Positions 7,411 through 60,493 of a stretch of 64,000 nt of DNA are shown piece by piece. Both the position numbers and the translations under genes were made by a program. The notes below the pieces were generated by a model. That model saw nothing but the letters and a program-made list of their open reading frames with translations. It had not been told where the DNA came from and searched no databases. Origin of the DNA: Papaver somniferum (lineage: Eukaryota; Streptophyta; Magnoliopsida; Ranunculales; Papaveraceae); NCBI RefSeq assembly GCF_003573695.1, contig NC_039367.1:163882542-163946541 (forward strand), written 5' to 3'. Each line of letters starts with the position of its first letter. Within the stretch, counting starts at the first letter, position 1.

Positions 7411-7525
7411 CCATTCTAAACACCAGCACCGCCGCATTAGACCTTTTTATAGAGCAAAGAGACCGGAACTTCTCTACAAAGAATTTCAGGCATTAGAAGC
7501 TCGATTCGTCGGAGGAGGAGAAGAA

Positions 7526-12185: not shown

Positions 12186-12333
12186 TAACTTGCCCAAGTT
12201 GTCCAAACTATACTTTATAAGGGAGATTAGCTAGCTTCATTGTTAGGCGAAAAGAAATCAATGTTTATGTTATTAGATTTTGTCACATTGGACATTACGA
12301 TCTGTTTATTTTGTATACAGAAACTAAAATCTC

Positions 12334-20017: not shown

Positions 20018-20089
20018 AATTTTCCACCACCACCGTCTCAAGGAAATAAATACGGAAAAGAAATTGATAGGAACACATTTTTTATTGAG

Positions 20090-33120: not shown

Positions 33121-33550
33121 GAAGAATCTGAAAAAGAAACCGTCGAGATTTCTATACATGCACTGGATGGATCATTAGCTCCACAAACCATGCGGGTACA
33201 AGGAGAAATTAAGAAGGCTAAAGTTACCATACTTATCGATTCTGGAAGTACCCATAATTTTGTTGATTCTGCGATACTTAAAAGAATGGGAATTAAGATA
33301 ATTAAAGATGAGACTTTTGAGGTGTTGGTAGCTAATGGTGCTAGAATGACTTGTGAAGGAAGATGCATGGATCTGGATTATAAGTTAAATAATATGGGTT
33401 CAAAGGAACTTTTTATGTATTGCCACTTGGGGGATGCGATGTGGTTCTGGGAGTCCAATGGTTAGAAACGTTGGGTCCCATAACTTGGGATTTCAAACAT
33501 TTAACCATGGATTTTAAGAGGGATGGTGAATCGTATTCGACTAGAAGGAG
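33121..33550 (+). pseudogene. gypsy aspartic protease
   Basis: It lies in the same frame as gag after one stop. It contains the catalytic LIDSGSTHNFVD, then FEVLVANGARMTCEG, and shifts frame near 33430 at the CHLGGCDVVLGVQWL motif. The usual protease core is otherwise present. Confidence 0.85.
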
Positions 33551-33599
33551 ATAAGAAAAATAAAGTAAAGTTAGCCAACATCAATAGCATCCAGAAACT

Positions 33600-35030: not shown

Positions 35031-36640
35031 TTATGTTAGTTGTGCTTGGATGGAAGACCTATTGACTGAACTAATAACAGATCCGTGGATCACAGATTTC
35101 ATCTTTAAAGTGAGTCATCCTTCTTTCGGCAAGAATAACTTTACCGTACGAGATGGTTTAGTTTACTATAAACAACATCAACAAGTGATAAGTCCTACTT
35201 CAAGGTGGAAGGCACTACTATTAGCTGAGTTTCATGACTCTCCAATTGCTGGTCATGCCGGATATTTGAAAACAGTAAAACGTTTATCTAAGTTGTTCTG
35301 CTGGTCTAGAATGCATAAAGAGGTGAGATACTACATTGCTTGCTGTGATGTTTGCCAAAGGAATAAATATAATACTCTTTCTCCAGCAGGATATCTTCAA
35401 CCATTGTCGATTCCTACTACAGTATGGACAGATATATCCATGGATTCTGTTGAAGGGTTTCCAAAGTATAAAGGGAAAACTGTGATTCTTGTAGTGGTGG
35501 ATCAACTAACTAAATATGCCCATTTTCTTGCATTAAAACATCCATATACAGCTACATCGGTAGCTCAGAAGTTTTTAGAAACAGTCATCAAACTTCATGG
35601 ATTTCCTCAATCTATAGTTTCTGATAGGGATGTTGTATTTACAAGTAATTTTTGGCAAGAGTTGTTTCGCCTACATGGAACTCAGTTAAGAATGAGTTCC
35701 TCCTGAAGTGGTTAACAGATGTTTGGAAGGTTACTTCCGGTGTTTCGCTGGAAATAAACCAAAAGGATGGTCATCTTGGTTACCATAGGCAGAGTATTGG
35801 TATAATACATCCTATCATACTTCAACTAATACTACACCGTTTGAGGCTTTGTATGGAATTCCTCCTCTGGTATTAGCAACTTATTTACCAGGAGAAGCGA
35901 AAACCACAACTTTGTCGGAGGAGGAATGCCATGGGCAGAGTATTGGTATAATACATCCTATCATACTTCAACTAATACTACACTATTTGAGGCTTTGTAT
36001 GGAATTCCTCCTCCGGTATTAGCAACTTATTTACCAGGAGAAGCGAAAATACCGGAGGAGGAATGCCATGGGCAGAGTATTGGTATAATACATCCTATCA
36101 TACTTCAACTAATACTACACCGTTTGAGGGTTTGTATGGCATTCCTCCTCCGGTATTAGCAACTTATTTACCAGGAGAAGCGAAAACCACAACTTTGGAT
36201 GAGGCAATAACCAAGAGGAATGAAGTTTTATCAATGTTTAAGGATCAACTTCAAGTGGTGCAGAATAAAATGAAGCTAAGGGCAGATGAAGGACGTCGGG
36301 ACGTTGTATATCAAGTTGGGGATTATGTGTATCTAAAGTTGTAGCCATATCGGCAAAATTCTAATGTGCAAAGGAAGAACCAAAAATTATCTCCACGATA
36401 TTTTGGACCTTATAAGATTTTGGAGCGTATAGGACCTGTGGCTTATCGATTGGACTTGCCTAAGGAGTCAAAGATACATTCGGTATTTCATGTATCGTTT
36501 CTGAAGAAGACTTTGTTTCCTAACACATTTGTTGAGGATAATCCACCATAAGAAGAAGATGAGGTTGATCCAGTAATCTCCATGGTTGAACTGATCCTTG
36601 AGGTCAAGGAAAATCATAAGGGGGAGGGAATGATAAGAAA
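35031..36640 (+). pseudogene. gypsy integrase with a triplicated segment
   Basis: The zinc finger (HDSPIAGHAGYLKTVKRLSK, CCDVCQRNK) and the core (WTDISMDSVEGFP with D, PQSIVSDRDVVFTSNFW with D) are open to 35703. There the frame is lost just before the YHPQxDGQTE glutamate region. The segment PWAEYWYNTSYHTSTNTT to LPGEAK then occurs three times in tandem. The C-terminal part follows with VGDYVYLKL, a TAG, then [20 protein letters not shown] and [12 protein letters not shown] chromodomain is not visible. Confidence 0.9.
35783..36200 (+). repeat. three tandem copies of an integrase segment
   Basis: CCAT(A/G)GGCAGAGTATTGG starts copies at 35783, 35929 and 36066, spaced 146 and 137 bp apart. The copies are nearly identical. 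The middle one lacks nine bases at its end (ACCACAACT). Neither spacing is a multiple of three, so each junction shifts the frame. Confidence 0.92.
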
Positions 36641-36948: not shown

Positions 36949-37420
36949 GTTTCCTCTAACTGAACTGTGATTAAAACCTACGGCTGGGATATGGGTGATT
37001 TTCACAAGATTAGACAAGACAACTGTACAAAAACAAATACAACGGCTGGTAAATAAGAAAACAAAAGTGACACGGGGTTGACACCAGAAAGTAATATACA
37101 GTTGTTGATAAGTAAATAATTAGACTCAACCACACAAAAGCCAGCTTATATAATTAATAAGGATGCAAGAGTCCTGAGATGGGGGGAAGATTTGAGGACC
37201 ATATATATATACCCATCCAAGATAACCTTCCCAGATAGCAAGAGACCTGAGAAGGAGGGCAGACTGATGATGCTGCATATTTTTTTTTTTTAATAAAAAT
37301 ATTCAGTTGACTGGAAACTAAGTCTCCAAATAAAACAAACAAAACACAATACATCATAAAACCCCTTCCACTTCGTTAGTTAATCACCATCCAAAAACCA
37401 AAGCTCTCCTTCTTTTCAAA
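36949..37420 (+). promoter_or_regulatory. 5' flank of the receptor kinase gene
   Basis: All of the sequence between the gypsy LTR and the ATG fits here. It includes an ATATATATATA run near 37202 and TTATATAATTAATAA near 37146, either of which could be a TATA region, and a poly-T run near 37281. The leader ends CTCTCCTTCTTTTCAAA before ATG. No defined operator can be named. Confidence 0.35.
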
Positions 37421-40400
37421 ATGTCACAACGAGTAAAAGTTTTCACTTCTACTTCATTAATGTTGGCAGTACTGCTAGTTCCATCTTACAGTTTCGTTCT
37501 TTTTGCTTATTCTTCCTTTTCTTCAACTCACAGAAAACAACATTTACAAGTAGTGGAACAAGAAGTAGATTCTCTTCTGAAATGGAAATCTACCCTGGTT
37601 AACGAAAATCATTCTCTGCTCTCTTCTTGGAAAATGAATTCTAGTGCGGGTACAAAGAGTCCGTGCAAGTGGTATGGAATACATTGTAGCAATGAAGGAA
37701 GCGTCGATGAAGTGAATATCCCAGGTTTAGGTCTAGAAGGTACGCTCCATAATTTCAACTTCTCATCTTTCTCCAACTTTGTTAGTCTTAACTTGAGTGG
37801 TAACAAACTCTTCGGAACCATTCCATCCCAAATTGGTAATCTTACTAAACTTATCCATCTTGATCTTTCTATAAATAAACTTTCTGGACAACTTCCACCA
37901 AAAATAGCCTCTCTTACGAATCTGTTATATTTAGGCCTCTCTGAAAATCATATCATTGGATCCATTCCTCAAGAAATTGGGAATTTTTATTCTCTCACTC
38001 ATCTAGATCTGTCCAGAAACAATTTCAAAGGTTCGATTCCCATCTCAATATGCAATTTGACCAAGTTGAGCTTTTTATCAATCTCTGAGAATAAAGTTTC
38101 TGGCCCCATACCACGAGAAATTGGTAGGTTAAGTTCGCTCACCCTCTTAGCTTTGTACAGAAACGATATCAATGGTTCAATTCCTTCTTCTTTGACCAGC
38201 TTGACTAGCCTCAGCAAACTTTCCTTATATGATAACCTACTTTCTAGCACCATCCCTCAAGATATAGGAAGGCTAAGCTCTCTTACCCTCTTAGATTTGT
38301 CCAAAAACAATTTCAAAGGTTCAATCCCTACTTCTATATGCCACTTGGCTAACCTTACCTATTTATCAATATCAAGAAATCAACTTACTGGTGTCATCCC
38401 TCAAGATATTGGAGAACTAAGGTCTTTGGATAACCTACTTTTGGACCAGAACATACTCACTGGCTCAGTCCCTGCTTCCGTTGGTAACTTGAAGAATTTG
38501 AATGTTCTAAATCTTTTTCAAAATGAATTAACTGGTTTATTACCAATGGGAATGAACAATCTGACCCAACTGAAAGTACTGTACTTAAATGACAACGAGT
38601 TTTCTGGTTATCTACCTCAAGGCGTCTGTCAAAGCGGAAGACTTGAAGAATTTGTCGCCTTCACTAACTATTTCACGGGTCCTATACCAAGAAGCCTTAG
38701 AAATTGCACCAGCCTTAAACTTCTTGGGCTTCAACAGAATGAACTGGTTGATAATATAACAGAGGCATTTCATGTGTATCCACATCTTGAAAAGATTGGT
38801 TTGGATTTCAATATGTTTTATGGTGAACTCTCCAAAGACTGGGGGAGTTGTCAAAATTTGACACTTTTATCCCTCTCAGGTAACAATATCACTGGTAGAA
38901 TACCATCAGAACTCGGAAAGTTGAAAATTTTAAGTATACTTTATCTTGATTCGAATAACTTGGTAGGAAAAATTCCTAAGGAGTTGTTGGATCTGTCTTC
39001 ATTGATCCTATTAGATTTGAGTAATAACCATCTTTCTGGTGTGTTGTCTTCTGCAATTGGAATGCTATCCAACTTGCAACATCTCGATCTATCAACAAAT
39101 AAACTCAAAGGTTCAATCCCCGAACAACTAGGGGAGTGTCGAAAGTTATTATCTTTAAATTTGAGCACAAACAATTTTAATGATAGCATCCCACTCCAGA
39201 TCGGAAACTTGGATTCGTTACAAATTTCGTTAGATCTTAGTTACAATGAGTTAAGTGGAGAGATACCGTCAGCTCTAGGGAAATTAAGCAAACTGGAAAC
39301 ACTAAATTTGTCCCACAACAAGCTTTTCGGCTCAATTCCATCTTCATTTGGTCAATTGCAAAGCCTGACCACGGTCAATATTTCTTACAATGAATTGAGT
39401 GGTCCTCTTCCAAACACGAAGGCCTTTGAGGATGCTCCAATCGAAGCTTTGAAGAGCAACAAAGGGTTGTGTGGTAATAACTCTAGAGGCTTAAAACCTT
39501 GTAATTCTTTAGTTGTGATTGGAAGAAAAGAAGACAAGCATAAGCTTTTGCTTGTAATCCTACTTCCTTTAATTGGTTCGTTGTTTCTTTTATCCATACT
39601 TATCGCCATTTGGTTTCGCCTTCGTAAAAGATCGGTAGGAAATATTGCACTTACAGATCAAGCAACATCTACCAATGCTGAAAGAAATTTATTTTCAATT
39701 TGGAATTACGACGGAAAAATAGTTTTTGAAGACGTAATCGAAGCGACCGAGGATTTTGATACCAAATATTGTATTGGAACTGGAGGGTATGGGAGCGTTT
39801 ACAAAGCAGAATTGTCAACAGGTCAGGTTGTTGCTGTCAAGAAACTGCACTCCTCGGATGAAGATTCTGAGAAATCTGATCTTAAGTCATTCGAAAGTGA
39901 AGTTCATGCATTGACAGAAATCCGACATAGAAATATTGTGAAACTTTTCGGTTTTTGTTCTAATCTTGAAAGACGGATCTCATATTTGGTTTATGAGTTC
40001 GTTGAAAGGGGAAGCTTAAAAAACGTTTTATCCGATGAAGTACAGGCGATGGAGTTCGATTGGATAAAGAGGTTAAGATTCATCAAGGGAACATCTGATG
40101 CACTTGCTTACATGCACCACGACTGCATTCCAGCAATAGTTCACAGAGACATATCTAGCAACAACATTTTGCTGGACTCTGAATACGATGCCCGAGTTTC
40201 TGATTTTGGTACAGCGAGGATTTTAAAGCCAGATTCATCCAATTGGACTTCACTTGCAGGAACCTATGGATATGTTGCTCCAGGTATATGGTCCAACTGA
40301 ACTGAAGCTTTTGAAATTTATTGTTATTGATACCATTTTTCTGAAGTTAATAAAAAAATTCAAAACCATTTTCTTTGTTACAGAGCTTGCATATACAATG

Positions 40401-40772
40401 AAGGTGACCGAGAAGTGTGATGTTTATAGCTTTGGGGTGATCATATTAGAAGTGCTAACGGGAATACATCCGTCTGAAATCATCACAATACTCTCCCAAA
40501 TTCTTCATTCATCTTTGTCGTCGAGTAATGTGGGGCACACCATAAAGCTGAGAGACATCTTGGACCAGTGCATTGGAGCACCACCGGATGTTATTCAAAA
40601 GAAAATAATATGTGTTGTGAAAGTTGGGTTTACATGTTTACGTGGAGATCCACTTACTCGTCCAACCATGGAAGAAGTATCAGCAGAGCTATCATCATCA
40701 TCTCAGACCAACACCTCTTTTCCAAAGTCATTTGAAACTATTACTTTAGCCGACCTACTCATGTCATCATGA
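37421..40772 (+). CDS. LRR receptor-like kinase, MIK2-like (subfamily XII-like)
   Basis: Two exons, 37421-40283 and 40384-40772, are joined at GCTCCAG/AGCTTGCA. The join restores the kinase motif [20 protein letters not shown] and gives about 1083 residues. In order: a hydrophobic N-terminal segment (residues 10-32, signal peptide), LRR N-terminal domain with [10 protein letters not shown], about 22-23 leucine-rich repeats (LxxLxxLxLsxNxLxGxIP, to about residue 670), a transmembrane helix around 706-728 ([20 protein letters not shown]), and a cytoplasmic kinase. Kinase motifs are [14 protein letters not shown] near 786, [15 protein letters not shown] near 907 and DFG near 928, so it is a complete RD kinase. 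It would perceive an extracellular ligand at the plasma membrane. No frameshift or stop is seen; it looks intact. Confidence 0.93.
40284..40383 (+). other. intron of the receptor kinase gene
   Basis: 100 bp, GTATATGG...TTTGTTACAG, splitting the codon for Glu in the APE motif. A single intron near this point is typical for this receptor family. Reading through it would give a stop after GIWSN, losing the last third of the kinase. Confidence 0.9.
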
Positions 40773-42431: not shown

Positions 42432-42465
42432 TCATATTCCTTCCCTTTTGTTGTTACCGGCATAA
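42432..42465 (-). pseudogene. detached last codons of F-box copy E
   Basis: Minus strand from the TTA duplication: continuing the F-box frame gives Y-AGNNKREGI and TGA at 42432-42434. Copies A and D have SGTYARR-type sequence at the same place (GGTACTTATGCCCG at about 8572). The agreement of frame and sequence shows this is the other side of the insertion. Confidence 0.8.
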
Positions 42466-42492
42466 GGCTGGGTCTAACCATATCCAAGATCC
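42466..42492 (+). repeat. left TIR of the Harbinger element
   Basis: GGCTGGGTCTAACC, then CCAAGATCC. The first 12 bases equal the reverse complement of the right end. Confidence 0.9.
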
Positions 42493-42599
42493 AGGATTAT
42501 ACACTATTGAAGTGTATACACTATTGAAGTGTCGTTTTTGCTGCTACAGTGTCGTTGATTCCCAGAGAGTGCTTCGTTTTGCTTGGATCCAAGATGGAA

Positions 42600-42770
42600 G
42601 TAACCCAGGCGCGAAATTTGAAACTGCATGCGGAAAAAGCAACAAACGTAGTTTCTAAATGCGTACCAACGAATATTTTGCGGAAATATTCTTCCGCACG
42701 CCGTTCCTAACAGTGTGCCACGCTTATTCAAACTGCGTATTTTGGGTACGCGGTTACAACTTGGGTGCCG
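42600..42770. repeat. sub-terminal GCG-rich motif cluster (left)
   Basis: Degenerate copies of GCGT(A/G)CC and GAAACTGC(A/G)T in an otherwise AT-rich element: AATTTGAAACTGCATGCGG, AATGCGTACCAACG, GTGCCACGC, GTACGCGG. The right end (53885-54015) and the promoter side of the SANT ORF at 46906 (46600-46710) have the same kind of cluster. Sub-terminal arrays like this often bind transposase. Confidence 0.45.
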
Positions 42771-43139
42771 GTTAAATATTTGTTTGAACTTTTTTTTCTA
42801 CACCCAGTTTACACTCTTATGTTATACGACAAGTTATTTGCGTATACTTTCTCAGAATAAGCGTCGGTTAAACATACACCATTATGAATAAATTGATATT
42901 AACCTTTGTGATACACGGATTGAATCAATAAAGACCTCTAAACGATTATTTAATCCTAGACTTAGATAAATTTCGGCGAAAGCAAGGCAATACATAATAT
43001 GTGCACCAAGCATTTAAACCGTTATGTGGCCATAACGGACGAGTTTTGTCTCTTGAGGGTTTACATAGAGGTATGCCCACAAAATCATTATTATCATGTC
43101 GTTGATGCGGTCGTTTTAATCTACTTCCTCTCCATCTTG

Positions 43140-43636
43140 AGGAGGATTTGGTGGTTATTGTATCGTGTTGAATTCCAGGATGTAAGCCTTCATGAGTAGG
43201 TAGCATTGATAAAACATGAATTATTTTCCTGTATCCCGAGCGTATTTCCCATTTGCATATCCCTCCTACACCAACAAAAAAAAGTCATAAGTTGGTAAGT
43301 GTTTTTGTTGAGGAATAAAATCAAGTGGTCTGAGTAAAAAGACAAACTACTTACAAGCCTCTCAACTGTCCATACAGGAGATCGTTTCTGGGAAATATAA
43401 ATTTCTTTCTGGTAACGAACGAAAACCCTCACCCCCTTTTTTATTACTCCGAGCCTACCTTTTATAGAAAAATTTGTTCTTTGATGAATATTTGTGAACT
43501 GTTGTGTGTAATTTTCGAATACGCGGTTCCAAACCGTATTAGCCGGAACCCTGTGATGGTCAACCTCGGGCAGGGTAACAACACTTACCCACACATTTGT
43601 GATTGCAACATCCTCTTCGACGGTATACCTATCCAT
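43140..43636 (-). pseudogene. SANT/Myb-like ORF1 module A
   Basis: On the minus strand, starting MDRYTVEEDVAITNVWVSVV and continuing ANTVWNRVFENYTQQF, FSIKGRLGVIKKGVRVF. The Trp spacing and the Lys-rich third helix are those of the Myb/SANT-like protein encoded beside PIF/Harbinger transposases. That protein helps transposase reach the nucleus and bind the transposon ends. The downstream part shifts frame; CYLLMKAYILEFN near 43175-43213 is the likely C-terminal motif, since modules B and C have it too. Confidence 0.6.
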
Positions 43637-44229
43637 TCTTCATGTGTTTTAGTTGCCGGATAAAATGGAAAATAAGAATCAATATTCCAGGAGAAGGTGT
43701 AACTGGATGGATCAGAATATCTTATGTTTTGCACTATTATTTAGCCTTGCGAAGATGTGATTTTATAGAGGACCTTCTGTAACTGTCCTTTCATGTAGCG
43801 ATGATGTGTAAGGCTTATCTTGTATTGCAAGTGGGTTGAGAAACCCGATAAAAACCACCCACATGTCAGACACTTTAAATCTTTGCTCTTAATTTATCCT
43901 ACACAGTTAACCTTGTCTGAATAAGTTATTCAAGATAAAATAATAGGAAGATCCAAAATGATGACTGTTTTGTTTATCCCCAAACATTTTTTTTGGATAC
44001 AACGTCTAGTAAGAATTAAATCTCTTTGAAACATCATATAATTTACTTTATTAATTTGAAATTAGTACACTTACGGCGAAACGGTATAAAAGTTCAACGA
44101 TAATTAACGTCCAACAAGCCTTTAAACCGGTTGGTGTCCCCAGCGGCCGAGTGGTCTCTCGGGAGAGTTTACAAGAGGTATTCCCACAAAACCAATAGAA
44201 ACGGTGATGTTATATTACCTCATGCGCCC

Positions 44230-44708
44230 TGCTAATGTCAACGGGTTGAATTCATCCACGGCGTCCTTCAAAAGAAGGTAGCATTCATAAAACTAAAACT
44301 TAATATCATTTTCTTTTCGGAAGCGTATTTTCGTCCTCCATTCATACATGCATAGTACGATAAAACCATTAATTACGCCTCAAAATGAATGTTTTACAAA
44401 TAAGGAACAAAAGCAAAAAAAACTTAAGATATTAATCAGAATGGAACTAGATGTGAGTTTTCTGAGCAGCTTGGCTTGGATGATAGCATACATCCCAACA
44501 TGCCTCAGTATATTATTCTAACATGATGTCTTACATCATGTGTTGTTCTTTGCTTAGGATTCGTAAAGTTTGTAACAAAATGGTTATGTACCGATGGCCA
44601 AAAGTTATCTTCATCTTTTTCAACTCCTTGTACAACTGGAACTGACCTTACTGCAATCCATGACGCTATAAATGTTTTTTGCTCGTCAGGGGTTGATGTA
44701 TTATCCAT
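44230..44708 (-). pseudogene. SANT/Myb-like ORF1 module B
   Basis: Minus strand: MDNTSTPDEQKTFIASWIAV, then EDNFWPSVHNHFVTNF and RTTHDVRHHVRIIY. It shows the same Trp-x-FW pattern as module A, but is short and ends at 44505. The C-terminal motif ECYLLLKDAVDEFN appears at about 44256-44296. No intact ORF joins them. Confidence 0.55.
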
Positions 44709-45131
44709 ATTGCAAAATACAAATAAAAGATTAGAAGTAGAGATTAAATAAGATGTTAAGACTTGTGGTGTGTAATTATATTTACAAAGGACTCCTTTTA
44801 TAGGAAATTAAGGGTTGAGTCCTCCCTCCGACGCAGTCTAAAATAGTGCTTGTGTTAACCGAACAGTATGAAACTGATCTAGACACGAGTTTCAAAATTT
44901 CTGACCGGATCTGATAATGAAAGATGGTAGGGGGTGTCGGTGACAGGTCTATCCCCATCATCCAAGGGGTGTTTAAAACAGTAAAGGGTGTTTATGAACA
45001 ATAAGGGGTTGGTTTAAAAGGTATTCCAACCAATACGTATGTTGGAACCTATAAACGACAGGGTTTTACCCCAAGGTATTTCACACTTCAGATTTAGTCC
45101 TTTGCTCTAGCCCCTTAGATCACAAGATAGA

Positions 45132-45251
45132 ATGTCTGAATTTGATTCCAACGAAGATTTAGCAATAATGAATATATGGGATGCACAATTTACCAGTGAA
45201 TCCTATATACGAGGCAAAACGAGTCAAGATTATTTTTGGCACCGGACGTAA
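45132..45251 (+). pseudogene. SANT/Myb-like ORF1 module F, N-terminal exon on the plus strand
   Basis: MSEFDSNEDLAIMNIWDAQF followed by SQDYFWHRT and TAA at 45249-45251. It matches the EDxAIxxxW and FWxR positions of the other modules but lies on the opposite strand from its neighbours B and C. The rest of the domain is lost. Confidence 0.5.
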
Positions 45252-45414
45252 GACCACAGTTAACATCATTGCAAGAACGATAAAAACACAATACGTAAGA
45301 CCACAGTTAACATCATAAATATCTTTTAACCAAACTAAAACCGACAATAAAACATAAAAACCCAATGGGTCATCCCACTTGAGCTTCATTGATGTGTAGC
45401 ATATCTAGATCTCT

Positions 45415-45903
45415 TATGGAGCGCGCCCATACAACCTCCTCGAATTGTACTCGTCGAAGGCGTCCTTCATAAGGAGGTAGCATTCGTAAAATCTGAAAGG
45501 GCGGATGTTTTTTTCAAGGAAATATGCTCTGGTCATTGTTTCCTGCATGAAGATAACAAATAATCAAACGATATAGTATGTTTGTTAAAAACCATTATTT
45601 TATAACTCTAATTACATACAATATCCATATCCGCTGTAATGAGTGATGGTGGAACGTATATTATTAGTCTCCCTCGGAGGATCACATACAATTTTACGTC
45701 TCTTATTATACTCCCAACCCTGATTCTAATGGCTTGCTTCGATCTACGATTTGGATTCGAAAATCTTTATTCAAACTTGCTATGGACCTGATGCCATATG
45801 TTTTGGGCGGGTGTATCCACACCTTTTGGGATCGGAGATTTCAATACACCAACCCATGCAGCGACAATTGCAGCTTCCTCCTCAACGGTGAATCAACATC
45901 CAT
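45415..45903 (-). pseudogene. SANT/Myb-like ORF1 module C
   Basis: Minus strand. After MDVD one indel leads into FTVEEEAAIVAAWVGVLKSP, QNIWHQVHSKFE, a TAA, then RSKQAIRIRVGSIIRDVKLY. It is colinear with modules A and D. The C-terminal motif ECYLLMKDAFDEYN stands at about 45447-45490. It is broken by at least one frameshift and one stop. Confidence 0.55.
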
Positions 45904-46389
45904 TTGGAAAATTTATTGTAAAATAAAGTCAGAAACTACTAAATAAGATGTTCAAGATTGTATATTCCATTTTGGTTCACGACAGTCTATTTATAGGAAA
46001 AAAAAAGATGTGTTACCCTACGAGTCACTCATCATGCAATCTCATTCAACGTTATTGTCATCGACCTGTCTTTCGCAATAGGAACTCTTTTTCCATATGA
46101 AATTAAATTATTATTTATAATAGGTGGACCACACTTTATCACTAGCATGAATCCGAGTGACTGCTGATTCGAATACATGCTAGAGGACAAAAAATAACCA
46201 GAAATACAGAAATACTATTAAAAGATGTCATTGTCGTCTGACACGCGATTACACTTAGCCCGTGTAACAAGCCTTTCAACCACTAGGCGACCCTACTGGA
46301 CGAGTTTAGTCTTGTGAAAGTTTACAGAGAGGTTTACCCACAAAACCTGTAGAGATTATGCTGCTGTATTAAGATTCGGCTCCATCTTC

Positions 46390-46580
46390 TGTATTGCGCT
46401 GAAACGGAGCAAGAAAGAACTCAAGATCATAGTCCCCACCAAATTGCTTCTTAAGAATTTAAAAAACCGCTCCGTGTGTCCATCTTTTTTCTTCCTCTTT
46501 ATATGCAACTTTCTCTTGACGATACTTGGCGAGATTCATATATCGTGTTAGTTTACTGAAATTCACCATTGGATCCTGCC
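46390..46580 (-). pseudogene. possible C-terminal part of another ORF1 module
   Basis: Minus strand: AKYRQEKVAYKEEEKRWTHG, stop, then ILKKQFGGDYDLEFFLAPFQ. It resembles the VLYEEDPTDPKCWRHQKVFE, ILKMHFPMEYDPSI region of module D. Its N-terminal part could be module E (48594) if module D was inserted between them. Weak. Confidence 0.35.
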
Positions 46581-46905
46581 AACCATTGGTGATCTAACGG
46601 TTAAAAACCACACGCTGTTTGAAGACGCGTGCCGCGCGTTTACTAAGTGCGTGCCACGAGGTTAGAAACTGCGTGTCGCGCGGATTCTAAACGCGTACAT
46701 TCTCATCCTTTGGATCGCCAATGGAACAATCGTTCTGATGGTTGACATCAACAGACCGTTAATGAATCATAATGTTCATATTTTACACACCCTATAAATA
46801 GAGTTTGTTTTCAGCCAAACCAGACACACAGAAAACATTTATAGTTCCCATCAGTACTTCTACATTTCTATCTCACGCTCTAACACTCCTTCTCCATTAT
46901 CAGAC

Positions 46906-47877
46906 ATGGAAAAATTTACTAGAAAAGAAGATGTAGCAATAATAGGAGCTTGGTGTGCAATAACAAGTTACCCGGTTACAGGTAGGGAACAAGAGTCCAT
47001 AGAGTTCTGGTCTCGTATTGTAGCTGAATACAACGCACGATGGGAGGGAGACAACAATATAAGTCTAAAGTCCCTCCAAACAAGAGTAGGCACTTTGAAA
47101 AAAAAAGTCAAAAGGTATGTTGGCCATGTTAGACAAATTTGCAGGTCTAACCCAAGCGGAAGCAACCCGCCAACTATGGTGAGTTTGATAACATTAATTA
47201 TGCTATATATATGACTTAACACTAATACCCTTTTGTGAAATTTAATGCAGTACCAGGATGACGAGGTTCTGTACGAGGAAGATCCGACAGATCCAAAATG
47301 TTGGAGACATCAGAAGGTTTTTGAAATTTTGAAGATGCACTTTCCCATGGAATATGATCCGTCGATCTTAGTTCCTCAAACTTCAAACCAAGCCTCCCAA
47401 CAGAGCCAACGTGTGAGCGAGATGGAGACTAATGATGAAACGTTTGACGATTCACAAACCACCGCCGGTGAATCCTCAGACCAAGGCCGAAGAAATGCAT
47501 TTTTTTCGGATCAAGGTCCCAGACGTGGCCCTGGTAGGGACAGGGCAAAACGAAGTAGAGCGGAAGAGAGAAGAGTAACCGAAGGAGTGAACCAGACAAT
47601 AGCATATTTCCAACAAAGGTATGGACAAAGGTTTGCATGGGACAACAAGAAGCTCAGGAAAGGATGAATTTTCTTCGAACAGACGACGGTGGTCCATCTA
47701 TTAGAAATTTTAACGGCGAGCAACGAGTTGTTAGCAATGAACAACCAGCGTAAGACTGACATGGATATAATGAAAATTAATATGGAGCAAATACACGACG
47801 ATATGCAAAGGGAGTATTTCGTCAATCTGAAAAATGACATTTTGATTCGTCAGGGGTCAAGTCGTCGTTATAGCTAA
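46906..47877 (+). CDS. SANT/Myb-like DNA-binding ORF1 (module D), best preserved
   Basis: Exon 1 (46906-47178) reads MEKFTRKEDVAIIGAWCAIT, IEFWSRIVAEYNARWEGD and LQTRVGTLKKKVKRYVGHVR. The intron 47179-47250 has GTGAGT and TGCAG ends. Exon 2 from 47251 gives YQDDEVLYEEDPTDPKCWRH, QKVFEILKMHF, a Ser/Gln-rich linker and a basic RRGPGRDRAKRSR stretch (possible nuclear signal). It ends at TGA 47665-47667. The coiled region LLEILTASNELLAMNNQRKT to 47877 lies in another frame, so there is a frameshift or an unseen second intron. It is the ORF1 that partners a Harbinger transposase: it binds DNA and imports the complex. Expression is unknown. Confidence 0.7.
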
Positions 47878-48139
47878 TGTCGAGAAGTTGGTTGCATTTA
47901 ACTATTGTTAGGAATTTAAGTATTTAATTATTCGTGTCGTATTATGAAATTTGCTTTTATTTTACCTCGTTGTAGTATTTAATTTCCCCTCTTGAATTAA
48001 TCTATCATGTAGCGGTTACTTAGTATGTTGTACTCCTTTATGTTCTTTAAACTTTAAATTTGAAAGAAACCACTTTAAACCTAGTTGCATTAGAAATAGT
48101 ACGATATTTTTTATTAGGATTCCATTACAAGTATATAAT

Positions 48140-48594
48140 CATTCCACATTGTATGAGGGCACAACGTCCTTTAGAAGCTCATACATGAAAGGCCTACTTG
48201 AATCCGCACGAAAATCGATCATAGCTCTTGTTTTCTGTAAAATTTAATAAAATATAAATAAAGTTTTCCGGCAATCGTATTTTTAATAAGAGTGCTAACA
48301 CTCGGTATTTATGGAAGGACATGTTTACTAACCCGAGATTCGTATGATAGCGTAGGATGGCTTATGTTTACATGAAGCAGACATGCAACAAAAGCATCAA
48401 TATCAGTGGTTATCAGCCCAAATATTTTTTTTAGCGAGGCTATAGTTTTGTTGTTTTCGTTACCGCTTCAAAGATTTGTTAAACACGGTTCCAGAAATTT
48501 TTTTGATCATCTGCAACCCCCTCGGTGGACCATGATTTGTTACCGCAATCCATGCTCCCACAACTCCTAAATCTTCTTCACCACTGAAGCGCAT
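48140..48594 (-). pseudogene. SANT/Myb-like ORF1 module E
   Basis: Minus strand: MRFSGEEDLGVVGAWIAVTN, a one-base shift, ADDQKNFWNRV and a stop. The C-terminal motif FMYELLKDVVPSYN near 48150-48195 parallels CYLLMKDAFDEYN of modules A-C. It is decayed. Confidence 0.5.
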
Positions 48595-48649
48595 TGAATA
48601 AGTAATTCAAGTTATGCAATAGTTTGACTGACACGTTAGATTAATGGAG

Positions 48650-49245
48650 TGGTTTATGTGGAAGACCTTAATCTTTGGAAACAATTTGTTTTCACTTGCG
48701 ATTATAACTCATTGCAAAGAATTGTGTTTCAAACTAGATTTTTTTTAAGAGATGTAAGATACTTTGTGGGTGTGATATTCAAAGGTAACCTTACTGACCT
48801 TTTTATAGTGTTAGTCAGATGCCAAAGGGACGCTTATGAACAACAAAAAACATTTATAAAAAGTTTATATAACTTCTGAGGCAAACATGGGTCATTTGTA
48901 AATAGTGATAATACTCTTTCCAAAAAGTTTAGGTCGTTAACTGTTAACGTGTACGTTGATTACTAGCTATACATAGGCCTTATCATCACAGTTGGGTATG
49001 GTGAATGATAAATGGATGTATGTAGTAAAACTATAAACATGTGAATGTCTAACCAGCATTTATAATAAAAATACAAATGTAATCCAAAATGAATTTCCTA
49101 GGTGGAATTCGAAAGAAAAAATTCATTCTAGAATTAAAATCTTAAAATGTCATTGGAAATAATTAAAATTAAAAAAAAAAAAAACAAGTCTTAAGAAACA
49201 AGTGCAGAAAAAGTATTGCGAAAGGAAACAAGTGCGGAAAAAGTC
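48650..49245. other. AT-rich spacer inside the Harbinger element
   Basis: No gene recognised. Poly-A run near 49171; AAGTGCGGAAAAAGT repeated near 49200-49245. Confidence 0.35.
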
Positions 49246-50521
49246 TTACGAAAGTAAGATCAGTGCATCCTGCTCTTCGTTCTCATAAAACTTATCATCA
49301 TTAGTAAGGTAAACATCTGCGTTTTCATCCACATCGGTAATACCCTCATCGGAAGTGGAGAGGCCATCTTGTACCTCAGCGGGACCGACTTCACCGTCTC
49401 TCAAGCCTAGAACGTGACCCTGCCAAATGTGCTTTGTTATATCTGCTTACAAGAATCTCCATCGGGAATGGATTTTATAATACACACGCGCTTCTCTCAC
49501 GTTACCTTGTATTGGAGGTGTTTCTCCATCGTAGCTTGCCCATTCCGTATCACGATACTCATATTCCACACACATGTTATGAATTATTAAACATGCTCTC
49601 ATAATTGTTTGTACGTCACGATGACATCAGTAACGACAAGGATTCCTAATTATACCCCATTTGGACTTTAGATCACCAAAAGCCTGCTCCACTTCCTTCC
49701 TATTTGCATGGTGGTATTCATTAAATTTCTTATGGATTGCAGGCATAGTCTCGCGTCTCTTATAGATATGGACCACCCCCGGCATCTCGTTGTAGATGTC
49801 GTCCACCAAATAGTATCCATGCTTGTACTCGTTACCGTTGATGCGAAAATTGCAAGTAGGGGCTAACGCGTCATTGTATCTATCAAATAATCCCGACTGC
49901 GCCAACACATTCAAGTCGTCGTTAGCCATGGACTCGCCAAAATAATTGTGCCAGAACCATCTATCGTATGATGCCACTTCCTGTAAACACAAGATTTGGT
50001 TTCTTAATGTTTCCCACGTGTCGGCCGGCTTCTTCAGTAGGACATAACCTCCACTCCCAATGGTTGCAATCGAGGCTTCCAAGCATTCCTGGAAAACCAC
50101 GGGCTTCATTCTGAGCCAATAACCTCCTAATATCTTCGGTTGTTGGTTGCCTCATGTAGCGGTCGTTAAAAACCCAAAGAAGTGCATCCATAAACTTTTT
50201 AACGTACATGTATATGGTTGCCACATCCATCTGATTGTAATCGGCAAGGCTATCTGCAACTACCCCCTTTGCTAGGTGTTTCATGACGGCAAGCATTTTC
50301 ATATGAGGAGGGTGACCCGGGATGTTACAAGCATCTCTTCGCTGTAAAAAATCATGATCTTGGGCGCAAATTTGAGGTAATATTTTAAGAAAAAGTTTTC
50401 GGGGCAAACCGTGACGTCCCTTAAAACGCGCAGGTCCGTATCTGCAACTGGGCTTGAAGTAGTCCTGCATCATATTGGCATCTGCATCCACATGGCATAT
50501 GTTAATGGTTCTTCTGCCCAA
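49246..50521 (-). pseudogene. PIF/Harbinger DDE transposase, one frameshift
   Basis: Minus strand. The N-terminal part reads RRTINICHVDADANMMQDYF, RHGLPRKLFLKIL and KMLAVMKHLAKGVVADSLAD. The catalytic core has the first Asp in FPGMLGSLDCNHWEW. A one-base shift follows near 49980 (KKPNLVF/LQEVASYDRWFWHNYFG), then the second Asp in NDDLNVLAQS and the Glu in KEVEQAFGDLKSKWGIIRNP. The C-terminal part (MRACLIIHNMCVEYEYRD) carries a TAA at about 49446-49448 and one at 49613-49615, and ends at 49246. The enzyme excises and inserts the element at TWA sites. All three catalytic acids are present, but the frameshift and stops make it inactive unless another copy acts in trans. Confidence 0.9.
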
Positions 50522-50905
50522 AACCTAGACCGGTTCGGGTTGGTGCAAATCATGCGCCTCCTGCAAAATTTGTTGATACATGATTATGAAATCTCCATGG
50601 CTATCATCTTAGTAACGTTTAGGGTATGTCTCCTCTCTCCGTCGTCGCATATGTCTAACGATAGCGGACTCCATTTTGCAGCTAGAGTAAAATTTTATCA
50701 ATATCGCTATGGATTTAAAACGGTATATTATTTCGTAAATGTTATCAAAAAAAATATAAAACGCACATAAACATGAAATATGAAGAACATACAATATGGA
50801 TAATAAGACGTCCAGCATATATTAGGAGAAACTAAATATATCATACAAGAACAAAATAACAAACGTCTACTACACCCTCGCTGATCAACACCATTTTAAC
50901 CACTT
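50522..50905 (-). other. decayed 5' end of the transposase gene
   Basis: Minus strand: MESAIVRHMRRRREETYPKR, stop, then GDFIIMYQQILQEAHDLHQP, stop, leading into the transposase frame. It is probably the original N-terminus, since plant Harbinger transposases carry such a charged leader, but two stops break it. Confidence 0.4.
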
Positions 50906-53009
50906 TTACTGGATAAAGGGAAATAACTGACTTTCTGGCACAAAGTCCGTATCAGCACCATCATCACCTCTCTGACCACTACCATGAACACTATCCTTCC
51001 AACTACCACCCAAGATTAGCCCTAAAAACTCACTAGATTTTGGTAAATCACTATAGTTTGGCGAGGGTAAATCACTCACATGAACGTTACTCTCAACAAC
51101 ATAAACGTAATAAGAATTCGATGCGGAGGGGTCTGCAGTCGGACGCTTGCGACGGTGTTGGGTTTCCGGCAAATATACACCCGCATTGTAAGTGCTGGCA
51201 AATGTATGTTCTTACTGACTTGAATTGAGGAGGTCGTCTGATCTTTCGGAAGTACGATGCGTTTTGGAGGTTTCATACAACACTCAACGACGAACCTCAT
51301 CGTATATTCCCTGTCTGGTGGTTTGGATCAGCCATTAAGCCTCGCCCGTAAACTTGCGTGACTCTTCCTAAAAAAAACAATTTATTAATTTTTTTTTTAA
51401 ATCTCCAAAGGAAAATAAAAATAAGATATAAAAGTACTAACCTCCCAGACGTTGATACCATTAAAATTGTACGGGTTGGGTGCTTGCTTGGGGAGTGTAA
51501 CTAGATCTGTGAACGAATCTTTGTAGAAAGGCATGTCCCATTCTAGGTTCGGGAGTTGCAAGATGGAGTGTCCTGCTTGGTCGTATGTGTATGTCTGGGA
51601 TGAAATTGTAGGAGGTTGGTATTGAGGCATCAGACTACGGGGTATACAGGCGTGACCAACTCCGATATCATCACGTGTGTCTATGTGAGTTGTTTTAGTC
51701 CTAAGAGCTCCCACGCTATGAGTTCTCCAAAAATGGGAATATACTTTTCCAATACAGGAAGGTAGTGGTCAGTAATATCAAGCACTGTCCTATCAGATAC
51801 GTCCTCCAATCTAGGGGGTTGCATGGGATAACTATGGCACCTAACACCTACCTCATACACCTCTCGGCCAGATAGGAATATGCTCTTGTTCCGTCCTTAT
51901 CATCCTTGAAAAGATATCTCCTCTTAGACATCTCATGTGTTGTTTGGAATGCATCAGTGAGTTGGTGTACACTATTCCGGAACCAGGGGTCCCAAATAAC
52001 CGCATCTTCGATCCTCATATCTATCTGAGTGCGTGCATCAGACACAGAGTGGTTGTGAAGATCTACTTGTCCCCTATTCCTAAGGTTCGAACTATCAAAT
52101 AGAATAATAACAGGGTTTTGATCAAGTTCATCATCATTTAGGTTTTCCTTCAAGACCGGTTGACAATTACAGAAATAAAAATAATACCAGAATTCTAAGA
52201 TCATTGACATGCCACCCATATCCTTCTGTTTGCACGAACTCCAGTCATCCAGATGTTTGTACAAAACACCCAAAGCTGGAGTACCCCAATCATAAGACCC
52301 AACATCATCCAAATTATCCAACACTACACACCATCGTTTATCTACTCTAAAACTCAAGTCTTCCAACAAAAAAAAACCAATACACCAAAGCAAGAAGATT
52401 CTAGTCAATTCATCTCCAATTTCGGTGTTAGGCTTCCCATCCCTACTTAAAATGTGATTAGCCAAGTGAGAAGTTCGCATCGTACATGCCTTGGAATCAT
52501 AATCTCCAAGGTTTAGACCCTCATCTTTTCTTTCTCATAACCTCTAACACAACCCGGAAATACCTATCATCCACAGCTTCAAGTTCTTGCGGCGTCATTG
52601 TTTCCTTTGGTAATTCTGGGATTGGCTTACCCCCTCCGATTGGAATACCAGTCAACCGGAAGAAATCTAGAGGGGTCAAACCTATCTCAAACTCATAGAA
52701 GTGAAAAGTTTTAGTCTTCTTCCACCACCTCTCATATAAATCTTCAGTTAATCCCTTATCCACATACTTAAATTTATATTTGAATACGGACTCGAAACCA
52801 CACATATGAAGAAGTATAATTGCACGGGGGTTGTTATGAACTACTATCTTGTATAATTTATTTACATTTTTCCAACTACTCCTAAAATTTGCGTCTCTCT
52901 TATCATCTAAGTTCTCACATTTATGTTGTATCCGTCCGACATCTTGAGATAGTTGGGATAACTTCTCGTACCTAGACCAATCGACATGCTCCATTATATA
53001 AAAAAGCAC
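50906..53009 (-). pseudogene. plant mobile domain (PMD) protein inside the transposon
   Basis: Minus strand, in four open pieces (52521-53009, 51848-52480, 51397-51714, 50906-51172). The PMD (aminotransferase-like, MAIN-type) fold is recognised from LYERWWKKTKTFHFYEFEIG, LTPLDFFRLTGIPIGGGKPI, then RIFLLWCIGFFLLEDLSFRV, DDVGSYDWGTPALGVLYKHL and GGMSMILEFWYY. These are the blocks of the family, followed by DPWFRNSVHQLT. One base is lost near 52490 between MRKKR and NLGDYDSKACTMRTSHLANH. The last two pieces may be exons. PMD proteins silence transposons or travel in them; here it lies wholly inside TIRs. Its role in this element is unknown. Confidence 0.75.
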
Positions 53010-53089
53010 AGAGTAAAGGGAAGCACAATCAACATGTTAATAACAAACAATCTTCCACATATATTAATCTATGCACAATCAACATATGA

Positions 53090-53370
53090 ATTCCCATAAT
53101 CAAATTCACCTCACATTGAGGTATGCACAATGCTGATATGAAAACCTCCATCAAAATGATACTAACAACACCAATTCCACCCTTCTAAACATCAACTCAA
53201 AAGAATACATGAGTTAATACTTAAACTCATTGCAAAATGCTCTAATGAAAACCTCCAAGAAAATCATATTAACAACATCAATTTCACCCATATAATCATC
53301 TCAACATCAACTAAAAACACTACATGAGTTAATCCTCAAACTCTATGTCCAATGCTCAAAACAAAATTGT
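53090..53370. repeat. tandem pair of about 110-bp repeats
   Basis: ATGAAAACCTCCA(T/A)(C/G)AAAAT, AACAACA, CACCC, CATCAACT and ACATGAGTTAAT recur in the same order at about 53139-53240 and 53247-53355. Non-coding, upstream of the PMD gene. Confidence 0.6.
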
Positions 53371-53884
53371 TTACATGCTTATCAAGTTACAAATTTCAAA
53401 CACATTTTACCAAGCATAAACACAATTAAATCAATCAATCTATTTATGAATCAATCATGAATTTATGTTTCACCTAAATTAACCCCAAATACCATAAACC
53501 TGACGGTGTTCACAGTTTAATTTTTTGAAATAAAAAAAAAATTATCCTACTGCTCAATCAACCTAATCAACATGATTCATTCAATAGCTTCGAAATCACA
53601 CCATTATAACTAAAATCAAAAACCAAAAATCAAACAAATCGATCAAAAAAAAAATTACTTACCTAGTGTAGATTTGTCAATGAAATCGTACAAAAATACC
53701 ACTAATAGTTTCCCCACATCTTCTACGACAAAACCCTTGTAAGATTGTCGCTCCTTAAACACAAAATCGGCTTGAATCAACCCATGGGAAATGAGATTCT
53801 ACGGTTTTTGAAGAAGAAGAGAGAAAAAGAAAGAATAGAGAAGAAGGGGCGCGACTTCTGTATGATTTAGGGTTTTCAAGGACG
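53371..53884 (-). other. upstream region of the PMD gene
   Basis: A consensus donor (minus-strand CTAGGTAAGT, plus 53654-53663) suggests a leader exon of about 120 bp on the minus strand that is spliced toward the PMD ORF. No coding motif was recognised in it. Confidence 0.3.
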
Positions 53885-54015
53885 CGCACTTTGAATCCGC
53901 GTGTTCACCGGTCAACAAGGTCAATACGCTGTTAAAAACGGCGCTTTTGAGTTTTCCTATGATACGCGGTTAGAAACGGCGTGCCGCGGAGGTTTAAAAT
54001 GCGTATCAACTAGGA
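53885..54015. repeat. sub-terminal GCG-rich motif cluster (right)
   Basis: GATACGCGGTTAGAAACGGC, GTGCCGCGGAGG and AATGCGTATC, plus CGCTGTTAAAAACGGCG. Same motif type as the left cluster at 42600-42770. Confidence 0.5.
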
Positions 54016-54083
54016 ATCTCGGATTCTCATTGCGCCCGGACGTCTGGGCGTTGTATTTTGTTGACGTGGATCCAAGAAATAGC

Positions 54084-54113
54084 TCGAATCTTGGACCACG
54101 ATTAGACCCAGCC
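54084..54113 (-). repeat. right TIR of the Harbinger element
   Basis: The reverse complement begins GGCTGGGTCTAATCG, then GGTCCAAGATTCGAGC. It is followed by TAA at 54114-54116. Confidence 0.9.
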
Positions 54114-55185
54114 TAAGTACCGGATTTGGGTGAAGCTAGACTTTCCACATAATCTATTGAATCAAGAAAAATTTGACCACACCTGGGTTTTCTACCCCTC
54201 GGATGCCCTGCGTCATATATAAATACCTTACAGCCATTCCTTAGGAGAATTTGACCACACCTGAAAGACGGCATAAGCTTCAAAGCATCATAGTCAGTTG
54301 TGATTAGGTCACGGTCGAATGTACAACAGTTAGTCCATGATTTTTGAACTCCGTAGTCTTGCATTACCCAAACATTAAAAGAAACCTCAGAAACCGTCAC
54401 AAGTACACAAAGGCACCCTTCCAAAACTCCTATGGTCACCGACAAATACTTCTCTAAGAGATCTTTTGGAAGTTCCAATTCCTTGAATTTCTTGTTGCTG
54501 AAATTAAAAAAGACTATTGAATTCGACGGGTTCTCCGTACGCGTTTGGCCTAACCAATGAAAGACCCTATTAACGAGAGTCCCAGTTTGTAGCTTATCAG
54601 GAAACGCATAACGCATGGATTCAGTAATACGTTCCCATGCTTTCGATCCTAACTTATAAACGTGGAACCCAGGACCATAATTTTTTAGCATCATTAACTT
54701 GTACTCACCCGCCTTGGAATCATAACCAAAAGCACTAATATTGATGGGAGTTGCATATCGTGATTCCAATGCTAAGCTCTTGTACTCTTTAGTTAATGGG
54801 TTACAAATACAAATGGAATTCCCATCTTTACTATCAAGACACATGCAAACTAGACCATTACATGAACATAAGAATCCAAGATTCTGAATACAACTGGACG
54901 GGTAATCTGCCATTTCAACGGTTTCACTTCCACTTCCACTTCCAGGCACTGACCATATTGAATCATAACTTATAGATCTGATTGCCCAACATCGTTTTCT
55001 CTCATCACAGCTACTGAATATGAGATTATAGTTTTTTGTTTGTGTAATAATATCAAGGTGCATCTTAACAAAATTAGGGTTAGAAATAATTTGAAACCAA
55101 TATTTGTAAACACACATCTAAGTAACCATTTCCTTGGTAGCCTTAAGAGGATCTCATGATACAGATCTTCAGGAACGCTTGACAT
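54113..55185 (-). pseudogene. F-box/F-box-associated protein, copy E, cut by the Harbinger element
   Basis: Minus strand. MSSVPEDLYHEILLRLP opens the F-box. A four-base deletion relative to copies A and D follows near 55110, and the frame resumes as YWFQIISNPNFVKMHLDI. From there an F-box-associated domain is open: SCNGLVCMCLD, NPLTKEYKSLALE, FGYDSKAGEYKLMML, VFHWLGQTRTENPS, LEGCLCVLVTV, VQKSWTN. It ends SLASPKSGT and TAG. That stop is made by TA of the target duplication plus G of the transposon end. The last codons lie 11.6 kb away at 42432-42465. Like its relatives it would be an SCF substrate receptor. Confidence 0.9.
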
Positions 55186-60349: not shown

Positions 60350-60493
60350 CGGCCCGTAAAGCTAAATCATGGGCCTCTTATATAGCCTATCTAAACGTTA
60401 GCACCGCATAGACCTATTTATCATAGAGCAAGAAGTTGTCTACCCTATCTCAATAAAACTGATCTAAGGAAGGGCTAAGAGGTACGAGAAGCA
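60350..60493 (+). promoter_or_regulatory. promoter region of F-box copy D
   Basis: GATAATAACCGGCCCGTAAA, GGGCCTCTTATATAGCC with a TATA-like TTATATA at 60378-60384, then GTTAGCACCGCATAGACC. It is shared with copy A. Confidence 0.55.

What the first reader, a model, noticed from the sequence alone, without database searches (positions are those of the whole stretch)
42466..54113. An 11.6-kb PIF/Harbinger element that carries a plant-mobile-domain gene between its TIRs
The ends (GGCTGGGTCTAA, TAA duplication) and the F-box gene restored by joining the flanks fix the boundaries. Between them lie a Harbinger DDE transposase and, on the same strand, a PMD (MAIN-like) gene. PMD genes are known to me from Mutator-like and gypsy elements and as host silencing factors. 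I do not know of one as resident cargo of a PIF/Harbinger element. It could be captured or a family-wide component.
Basis: partly seen in the sequence, partly recalled or inferred. Interest (0 to 1): 0.9.

Follow-up and report, generated by a model that had tools for sequence, protein, structure and literature searches.

The report
Poppy transposon family carrying silencing-gene relative
In opium poppy, a family of cut-and-paste jumping genes carries, as a standing part of its make-up, its own version of a gene type that plants use to silence jumping genes, which suggests an old and testable way for the element to interfere with its host's defences.

Summary
The element is real: window 42466-54113, matching TIRs, TAA duplication. 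The genome is Papaver somniferum. The PMD gene is not chance cargo. A second copy is collinear over 94% of the element. Of 36 family TPase loci, 28 have a listed same-strand PMD 1.4-3.7 kb upstream, none on the other strand. A second Harbinger clade, about 50% identical in TPase, has the order PMD-TPase-Myb at the one locus read through and an upstream PMD at 32 of 97 TPase loci; each clade pairs only with its own PMD; other poppy Harbinger TPases show 1 of 87. The element PMDs group apart from 11 other poppy PMDs sampled. Purifying selection is clear between clades and subfamilies, but weak or absent within clade 2. In the window copy both PMD and TPase are broken. The element also holds at least five Myb/SANT-like genes. 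Likeliest role of the PMD: countering host MAIN/MAIL1-type silencing, which is inferred only. New variant of PIF/Harbinger.

The parts
42463..42465 (.). left copy of the target-site duplication TAA
42466..42490 (+). left TIR (12 exact bases, about 25 imperfect)
42949..43639 (-). Myb/SANT-like gene (exon 1 43193-43639; putative exon 2 42949-43284); counterpart in the C1896 copy 79-85% identical in protein
44508..44807 (-). second Myb/SANT-like gene of the array, with a repeated 3' part reaching about 44109
45129..45245 (+). possible fragment of a Myb/SANT-like N-terminus (E 0.005)
   Evidence: (D13)
45476..45892 (-). third Myb/SANT-like gene of the array (27-33% to its neighbours)
46261..46536 (-). 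degenerate 3' part of a further Myb/ORF1-like gene
46612..46702 (+). cluster of short diverged repeats also found near both ends of the element, upstream of the plus-strand ORF1
   Evidence: D2, D8, D9
46906..47877 (+). ORF1-like gene (Myb/SANT-like exon, putative intron, C-terminal part with a sub-threshold NAM-associated match); reading frame changes near its 3' end, apparently broken
48324..48594 (-). Myb/SANT-like gene downstream of the transposase ('MYBd'), also found downstream of the transposase in many family copies
49246..50674 (-). PIF/Harbinger DDE transposase gene, broken (4 stops in 467 aligned codons, plus a frame break)
50906..51367 (-). PMD gene, last exon (3 in-frame stops before its end)
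51442..52994 (-). PMD gene, first exon (Pfam PF10536 over its cut-off), with stops and frame breaks
54088..54113 (-). right TIR
54114..54116 (.). right copy of the target-site duplication TAA

Best explanation
This is a decayed copy of a multi-gene PIF/Harbinger DNA transposon of opium poppy whose standard gene set is PMD, DDE transposase and several Myb/SANT-like ORF1-type proteins. The PMD gene is a long-resident component, inherited with the transposase in at least two Harbinger clades, and not a recent capture. Mobility most likely works as in PIF/Pong: an ORF1 protein binds DNA near the ends and the transposase cuts and pastes into TWA sites (inferred from the families). The element's PMD protein most likely acts against host silencing, by competing with or mimicking the host MAIN/MAIL1-PP7L module, much as VANC proteins protect VANDAL elements (inferred; I give this specific role about 0.4).
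For: Shown: TIR, TSD, transposase and PMD in the window. A second full-length copy, collinear over 94% of the window element at about 85% identity, with TIRs (2 mismatches each in 12) and a TTA duplication. A third copy with both exact TIRs and TTA (9.46 kb). 28 of 36 clade-1 and 32 of 97 clade-2 TPase loci with a listed same-strand PMD 0-8 kb upstream, none on the opposite strand, and strict clade matching; about 0.007 pairs expected by chance for clade 1. Same gene order PMD-TPase-Myb in the one clade-2 locus read. Correlated PMD and TPase distances (r 0.72, p 0.0006 for 11 copies; r 0.41, p 0.007 without the most distant). PMD-core dN/dS about 0.41 (median) between subfamily B, represented by one copy, and ten A copies, each of the 10 pairs rejecting 1; 0.03-0.13 between clades with saturated synonymous sites, 9 of 9 pairs rejecting 1. 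One PMD group of the elements with support 100/99. For the role: host PMDs MAIN and MAIL1 silence TEs (PMC5418596, PMC7156037, passages), and use of TE-borne PMDs against silencing has already been suggested in print (PMC5418596, PMC8616336, passages).
Against: 8 of 36 clade-1 and 65 of 97 clade-2 TPase loci have no listed PMD within 8 kb, although the PMD lists are capped and many loci are fragments. Among nine clade-2 PMDs 4 of 36 pairs reject dN/dS = 1; the tree-wide value 0.79 rejects 1 only weakly (2dlnL 6.0) and the inner branches give 0.99, so recent constraint there is not shown. In the PMD last exon 9 of 10 subfamily pairs reject 1, not 10. No expression, methylation or protein data. 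The fold prediction was of low confidence (pLDDT 44.8). The element PMDs are only about 19-26% identical to the poppy genic and other PMDs sampled, which makes mimicry of MAIN less certain.
Confidence: 0.75

Rival explanations
1. The PMD is a third transposition factor: it is needed in the cut-and-paste complex itself (end binding, nuclear import, target choice), not for countering silencing.
For: Fixed place beside the transposase, strict clade matching and correlated divergence fit a protein partner of the transposase as well as an anti-silencing protein.
Against: 86 of 87 other poppy Harbinger TPase loci have no listed PMD of these kinds upstream, and 3 of 3 of them read upstream have none. 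A 4.05-kb clade-2 deletion derivative keeps an uninterrupted PMD frame while, by eye, transposase and most of ORF1 are gone, which looks like a separable unit.
Confidence: 0.3
2. Passenger: the PMD is kept only because it sits between the ends, with no benefit to the element.
For: dN/dS close to 1 among clade-2 copies; all 11 clade-1 PMDs with at least 600 of 676 codons read have 1 or more stops.
Against: dN/dS well below 1 between subfamilies and clades; PMD and TPase both retained across about 45% protein identity.
Confidence: 0.15
3. Chance nested insertion, or recent capture of a host MAIN-like gene by this one copy.
For: Gene capture by DNA transposons is known, and MULE elements are reported to have captured PMD-C genes twice (PMC5418596, passages).
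Against: PMD at the same place in 28 of 36 family TPase loci and in a copy collinear over 94%; the element PMDs are a separate, long-branched group, not close to any genic PMD sampled.
Confidence: 0.02

Closest known systems
PIF/Pong/Harbinger elements of plants
   Same: TIRs, TTA/TAA duplication, Plant_tran/DDE_Tnp_4 transposase, ORF1-like genes (traits as listed in PMC4565680, passages; the Myb/SANT nature of ORF1 from the abstracts and recall)
   Different: PIF elements are described there as mostly about 4-6 kb with two ORFs; copies of this family reach 9.5-13 kb and add a PMD gene and several Myb/SANT-like genes
MULE elements with a captured PMD-C
   Same: DNA transposon with a PMD (PMC5418596, passages)
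   Different: There the PMD is fused to a MULE transposase and embedded among host PMD-C genes; here it is a separate gene beside a Harbinger transposase and groups apart from the poppy genic PMDs sampled
Ty3/gypsy elements with PMD (PMD-A)
   Same: PMD as a standing component of a TE lineage (PMC5418596, passages)
   Different: Retrotransposon; the presumed gypsy-type poppy PMDs (L058, L059; label from recall, surroundings not read) fall outside the Harbinger PMD group
Host MAIN, MAIL1 and relatives
   Same: Same Pfam domain; some poppy copies of the element PMD carry the name 'MAIN-LIKE 2-like'
   Different: Host genes; about 19-26% identity between the element PMDs and the poppy genic PMDs sampled
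VANDAL elements with VANC
   Same: A TE-borne protein gene besides the transposase, proposed here to counter silencing (works-like comparison only; PMC5735166, passages)
   Different: VANC is a different protein in other elements; no anti-silencing was tested here

Membership tests
PIF/Harbinger | Transposase sequence of the superfamily | tested here: met
   Plant_tran and DDE_Tnp_4 over their cut-offs in the window and in clade 2
PIF/Harbinger | TTA/TAA target-site duplication | tested here: met
   TAA in the window, TTA in the C1896 and C9953 copies, TAA in the clade-2 deletion derivative; 8 of 10 other copies scanned at the PMD end have a recognisable TIR, all 8 with TTA or TAA outside it
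PIF/Harbinger | Terminal inverted repeats of 14-25 bp | tested here: met
   12 exact bases, about 25 with mismatches and one gap
PIF/Harbinger | ORF1 with a Myb/SANT-like domain | tested here: inconclusive
   Several conserved short ORFs look Myb/SANT-like by eye, but Pfam matches are below cut-off (NAM-associated 16.8 of 27.7; Myb_DNA-bind_5 14.1 of 21.7)
PIF/Harbinger | Complete DDE triad with proper spacing | not tested
   Not checked residue by residue; this copy's gene is broken
Plant mobile domain family (PF10536) | Pfam score over the gathering cut-off | tested here: met
   Window piece 63.5, P0001 95.7, P0004 82.1 against 34.9
PMD-A, -B or -C clade of Ikeda et al. | Position inside one of the published clades | tested here: inconclusive
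   The element PMDs group apart from the 11 other poppy PMDs sampled; the published reference sequences were not used
MULE with PMD | PMD fused to a MULE transposase | tested here: not met
   Harbinger transposase, separate gene
Anti-silencing TE (VANDAL-like in action) | Protein causes loss of silencing marks | not testable with these tools
   Needs plants

The most novel reading that the evidence does not exclude
A whole superclade of PIF/Harbinger transposons has carried its own PMD lineage since before the split of clades that now share about 45% protein identity, and uses the PMD to disarm the host's MAIN/MAIL1-type silencing. A related PMD from an assembly contig of unnamed origin (P0005, 57% to clade 2) leaves open that the superclade extends beyond the opium poppy genome.
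Probability: 0.33. Interest if true: 0.82.

Novelty: new variant of a known kind. Interest (0 to 1): 0.7.

Why it matters
PMD proteins silence transposons in plants, yet PMDs also ride in transposons, and how the retrotransposon PMDs relate in ancestry to the genic ones is called fully open (PMC5418596, passages). A third type of carrier, with its own deep PMD group, gives that question a new branch to test. It also offers a natural experiment: Harbinger groups with and without such a PMD in one genome. It warns too that some poppy genes named 'MAIN-LIKE 2-like' are transposon genes.

Tried and rejected
Nested insertion or chance capture: rejected by the family-wide occurrence. F-box reconstruction as boundary evidence: weak, adds 10 codons. 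A scan for a 20-base subterminal motif gave only 4 hits in the window with up to 6 mismatches, one of them outside the element; binding-site arrays are therefore not claimed. A third PMD group (P0003; L068-L070) has Myb-like genes downstream in 2 of the 3 copies read and no transposase match in any. Protein database searches returned 3, 1 and 5 proteins, all poppy or unnamed assembly contigs; they need shared exact words, so absence elsewhere is not shown. Structure prediction gave pLDDT 44.8; no fold search was made. A whole-PMD codon tree by IQ-TREE printed a likelihood but no omega, and its transposase half did not run, so codon models of my own were used. Codons were taken from tblastn matches (from protein-guided local alignments) with stops masked, so positions near frame breaks may be wrong, and conditioning on alignable protein favours low dN/dS.
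Full report
OBSERVATION. The element spans 42466-54113. The 12-base TIR GGCTGGGTCTAA occurs in the window only at the two ends, facing inward, with TAA on both outer sides. On the minus strand lie, in order of transcription, a PMD gene (first exon 52994-51442, last exon 51367-50906), a Harbinger-type DDE transposase (50674-49246) and a short Myb/SANT-like gene (48594-48324). The left 5.4 kb hold three more diverged Myb/SANT-like genes on the minus strand, one ORF1-like gene on the plus strand (46906-47877) and remnants. The label Myb/SANT-like is by eye and recall; Pfam matches of such ORFs stay below cut-off. PMD pieces score 63.5 and 25.6 bits against PF10536 (cut-off 34.9); transposase pieces score 95.6 and 59 bits against Plant_tran (cut-off 22). 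Over the aligned codons this copy has 6 stops in the PMD (668 of 676 codons) and 4 in the transposase (467 of 469), besides frame breaks, so it looks dead.

HOST. The window lies in a genome of 2.715 Gb. Three proteins found with the PMD are named Papaver somniferum and lie on contigs whose lengths equal those of C9 and C2 of this genome, so the host is opium poppy.

IS THE PMD FAMILY-WIDE? The exact TIR motif occurs 113 times in the genome, fewer than its reversed control (278), so the motif alone is not informative and I used proteins. A transposase search (150 of 2929 first-look candidates scored) listed places of which a group at 65-100% identity stands apart from the rest at 52% or less. 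Around 29 other group members (3.3-kb loci L010-L038) the PMD last exon lies directly upstream of the transposase, same strand, in 25 of 29, two of them only in part (L016, L036); L020, L030, L035 and L037 show none. In the window 231 bases separate the PMD stop from the transposase start. I then fetched a stretch further upstream in nine copies of my choice; 9 of 9 hold the PMD first exon. A genome search with the PMD P0001 (106 of 6546 candidates scored) gave 108 matches. Merged, 28 of 36 clade-1 transposase loci have a listed same-strand PMD 0-8 kb upstream (1.35-3.75 kb, median 1.85), 0 downstream and 0 on the opposite strand; about 0.007 would be expected by chance. Of the other eight, five have their nearest listed PMD 11-24 kb upstream, two of these being the PMD of a neighbouring copy, and three have none within 25 kb.

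WHOLE COPIES. The copy at C1896 runs from TIR to TIR (2 mismatches in 12 at each end) with TTA on both sides, about 12.95 kb, and is collinear with 94% of the window element at 84.8% mean identity, including PMD, transposase and most of the Myb array. Its PMD has stops of its own and lacks the window's frame break in the PMD core, so the two decayed at least partly on their own. The copy at C9953 has both exact TIRs, TTA duplications and a length of 9.46 kb. Of ten other copies scanned at the PMD end, 8 show a recognisable TIR, each with TTA or TAA directly outside; L041 and L046 do not.

A SECOND CLADE. Four transposases at about 50% identity to the family also had a PMD (43-45%) about 1.7 kb upstream. 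One such locus, L050, shows PMD, PMD tail, transposase and Myb-like ORF1 in the same order and strand. Searches with its transposase and with a related PMD (P0004) gave two more lists (147 of 3929 and 81 of 4691 candidates scored). Merged, 32 of 97 clade-2 transposase loci have a listed same-strand PMD 0-8 kb upstream, 2 downstream, 0 opposite. No clade-1 transposase has a clade-2 PMD, and none the other way round. Among 87 other Harbinger transposase loci (53% or less to both queries), 1 has such a PMD; that PMD is of the clade-1 kind, and the transposase there is riddled with stops and may be a decayed clade-1 copy. Three of the others, read for about 3.8 kb upstream, have none (3 of 3; best profile score 2.7 bits). 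The lists hold only the best-scored candidates, so the positive counts are lower bounds, and a PMD too diverged to be listed could be missed in the 87. A 4.05-kb clade-2 derivative (L052) has its own TIRs and TAA duplications and keeps an uninterrupted 547-codon frame over the PMD first exon, while by eye the transposase and most of ORF1 are deleted.

ORIGIN OF THE PMD. In a 20-row tree the element PMDs of both clades (7 rows), P0003 and P0005 form one group (support 100/99; branch 1.95 changes per column), apart from 11 other poppy PMDs: three presumed genic MAIN-like, two presumed gypsy-type and six of two further high-copy groups. The tree is unrooted, and the tool warns that the joining of long branches, the gypsy-type rows and this group among them, may be false. 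Identity to the other poppy PMDs is about 19-26% where a match was found at all. The group names are mine, from sequence features and recall; their surroundings were not read. P0005 comes from an assembly contig of unnamed origin; P0007 and P0008 likewise. P0003 belongs to a third poppy group; its three fetched copies show no transposase, and two have Myb-like genes downstream.

SELECTION. Pairwise codon models between subfamily B (one copy, C2781, so the pairs are not independent) and ten subfamily-A copies give PMD-core dN/dS of 0.34-0.48, 10 of 10 rejecting 1; the PMD last exon 0.35-0.68, 9 of 10; the transposase 0.21-0.33, 10 of 10. Among the ten A copies the medians are 0.65 (PMD core), 0.68 (last exon) and 0.49 (transposase). 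A branch model for the PMD core gives 0.52 on inner and 0.72 on end branches, both differing from 1 (2dlnL 8.1 and 7.0); for the transposase 0.28 and 0.55. Between clades synonymous sites are saturated, but 1 is strongly rejected for PMD (9 of 9 pairs, 2dlnL 91-161) and transposase (3 of 3, 2dlnL 73-88). Against this, among nine clade-2 PMDs 4 of 36 pairs reject 1 (median 0.78); the tree-wide value is 0.79 (2dlnL 6.0), with 0.99 on inner and 0.74 on end branches. So constraint on recent clade-2 history is weak or absent in these data. PMD and transposase distances among 11 clade-1 copies correlate (r 0.72, p 0.0006; without C2781 r 0.41, p 0.007).

HOW IT LIKELY WORKS. Shown: anatomy, co-inheritance, constraint between subfamilies and clades. 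Inferred from family knowledge: ORF1 proteins bind DNA and the transposase cuts and pastes at TWA sites. Inferred and unproven: the PMD counters silencing. The basis is that host PMDs MAIN and MAIL1 silence TEs and interact with PP7L (PMC7156037, passages), that anti-silencing use has been suggested for MULE-borne PMDs (PMC5418596, passages) and for TE-encoded PMDs generally (PMC8616336, passages), and that VANDAL elements do carry an anti-silencing protein, VANC (PMC5735166, passages). A role in transposition itself remains the main rival. The predicted fold was too uncertain to help.

KNOWN OR NEW. Most PIF elements are described with two ORFs and about 4-6 kb (PMC4565680, passages). TE-borne PMDs are described in MULE and Ty3/gypsy elements (PMC5418596, passages). 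Full-text searches of the held library for 'plant mobile domain' with 'Harbinger' (2 papers), 'Harbinger' with 'MAIN-like' (1) and 'plant mobile domain' with 'PIF' (2) led to no report of a PMD in a Harbinger element in what I saw: passages of PMC8616336 (its PMD passages only) and PMC4583175; PMC11276061 only in the listing. PMC10673657 (passages) treats PMD and transposase genes of tea and holds neither 'PIF' nor 'Harbinger'. Most subscription journals and Repbase were not searchable. I file it as a new variant of a known kind.

Noticed in passing
P0001, P0003, P0006: NCBI names these poppy proteins 'protein MAIN-LIKE 2-like'; by sequence they belong to the element PMD groups. P0009, named 'uncharacterized protein', is close to clade 2.
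   Followed up: partly
L052 677-4729: 4.05-kb clade-2 deletion derivative with own TIRs and TAA duplication that keeps an uninterrupted PMD frame but, by eye, has lost the transposase and most of ORF1.
   Followed up: partly
L068, L069, L070: Third PMD group (P0003 kind); Myb-like genes downstream in L068 and L069, no transposase match in any of the three.
   Followed up: partly
G000 C2 208.98-209.02 Mb (L018, L019, L025): Three family copies spaced about 15.5-15.6 kb apart on one strand, suggesting a tandem segmental duplication that includes the element.
   Followed up: no
window 42698-42770, 46612-46702, 53963-54010: Short diverged repeats at both ends and in front of the plus-strand ORF1, possibly binding sites of the Myb-like proteins; a consensus scan gave little support.
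   Followed up: partly
L034 1560: The exact 12-base TIR motif lies inside the transposase region of another copy, perhaps a nested insertion or chance.
   Followed up: no
window 7379-8083, 12328-12819, 54113-55117, 60479-61213: Several F-box-type ORFs, by eye; only 54113-55117 was tested (FBA_1 over its Pfam cut-off). The insertion sits near the 3' end of that ORF.
   Followed up: partly
window 280-2686, 18812-20854, 25435-25974, 32296-35706: ORFs that look like copia and gypsy retrotransposon remnants (by eye).
   Followed up: no
window 37334-40772: Long LRR receptor-kinase-like gene in two overlapping frames (by eye).
   Followed up: no
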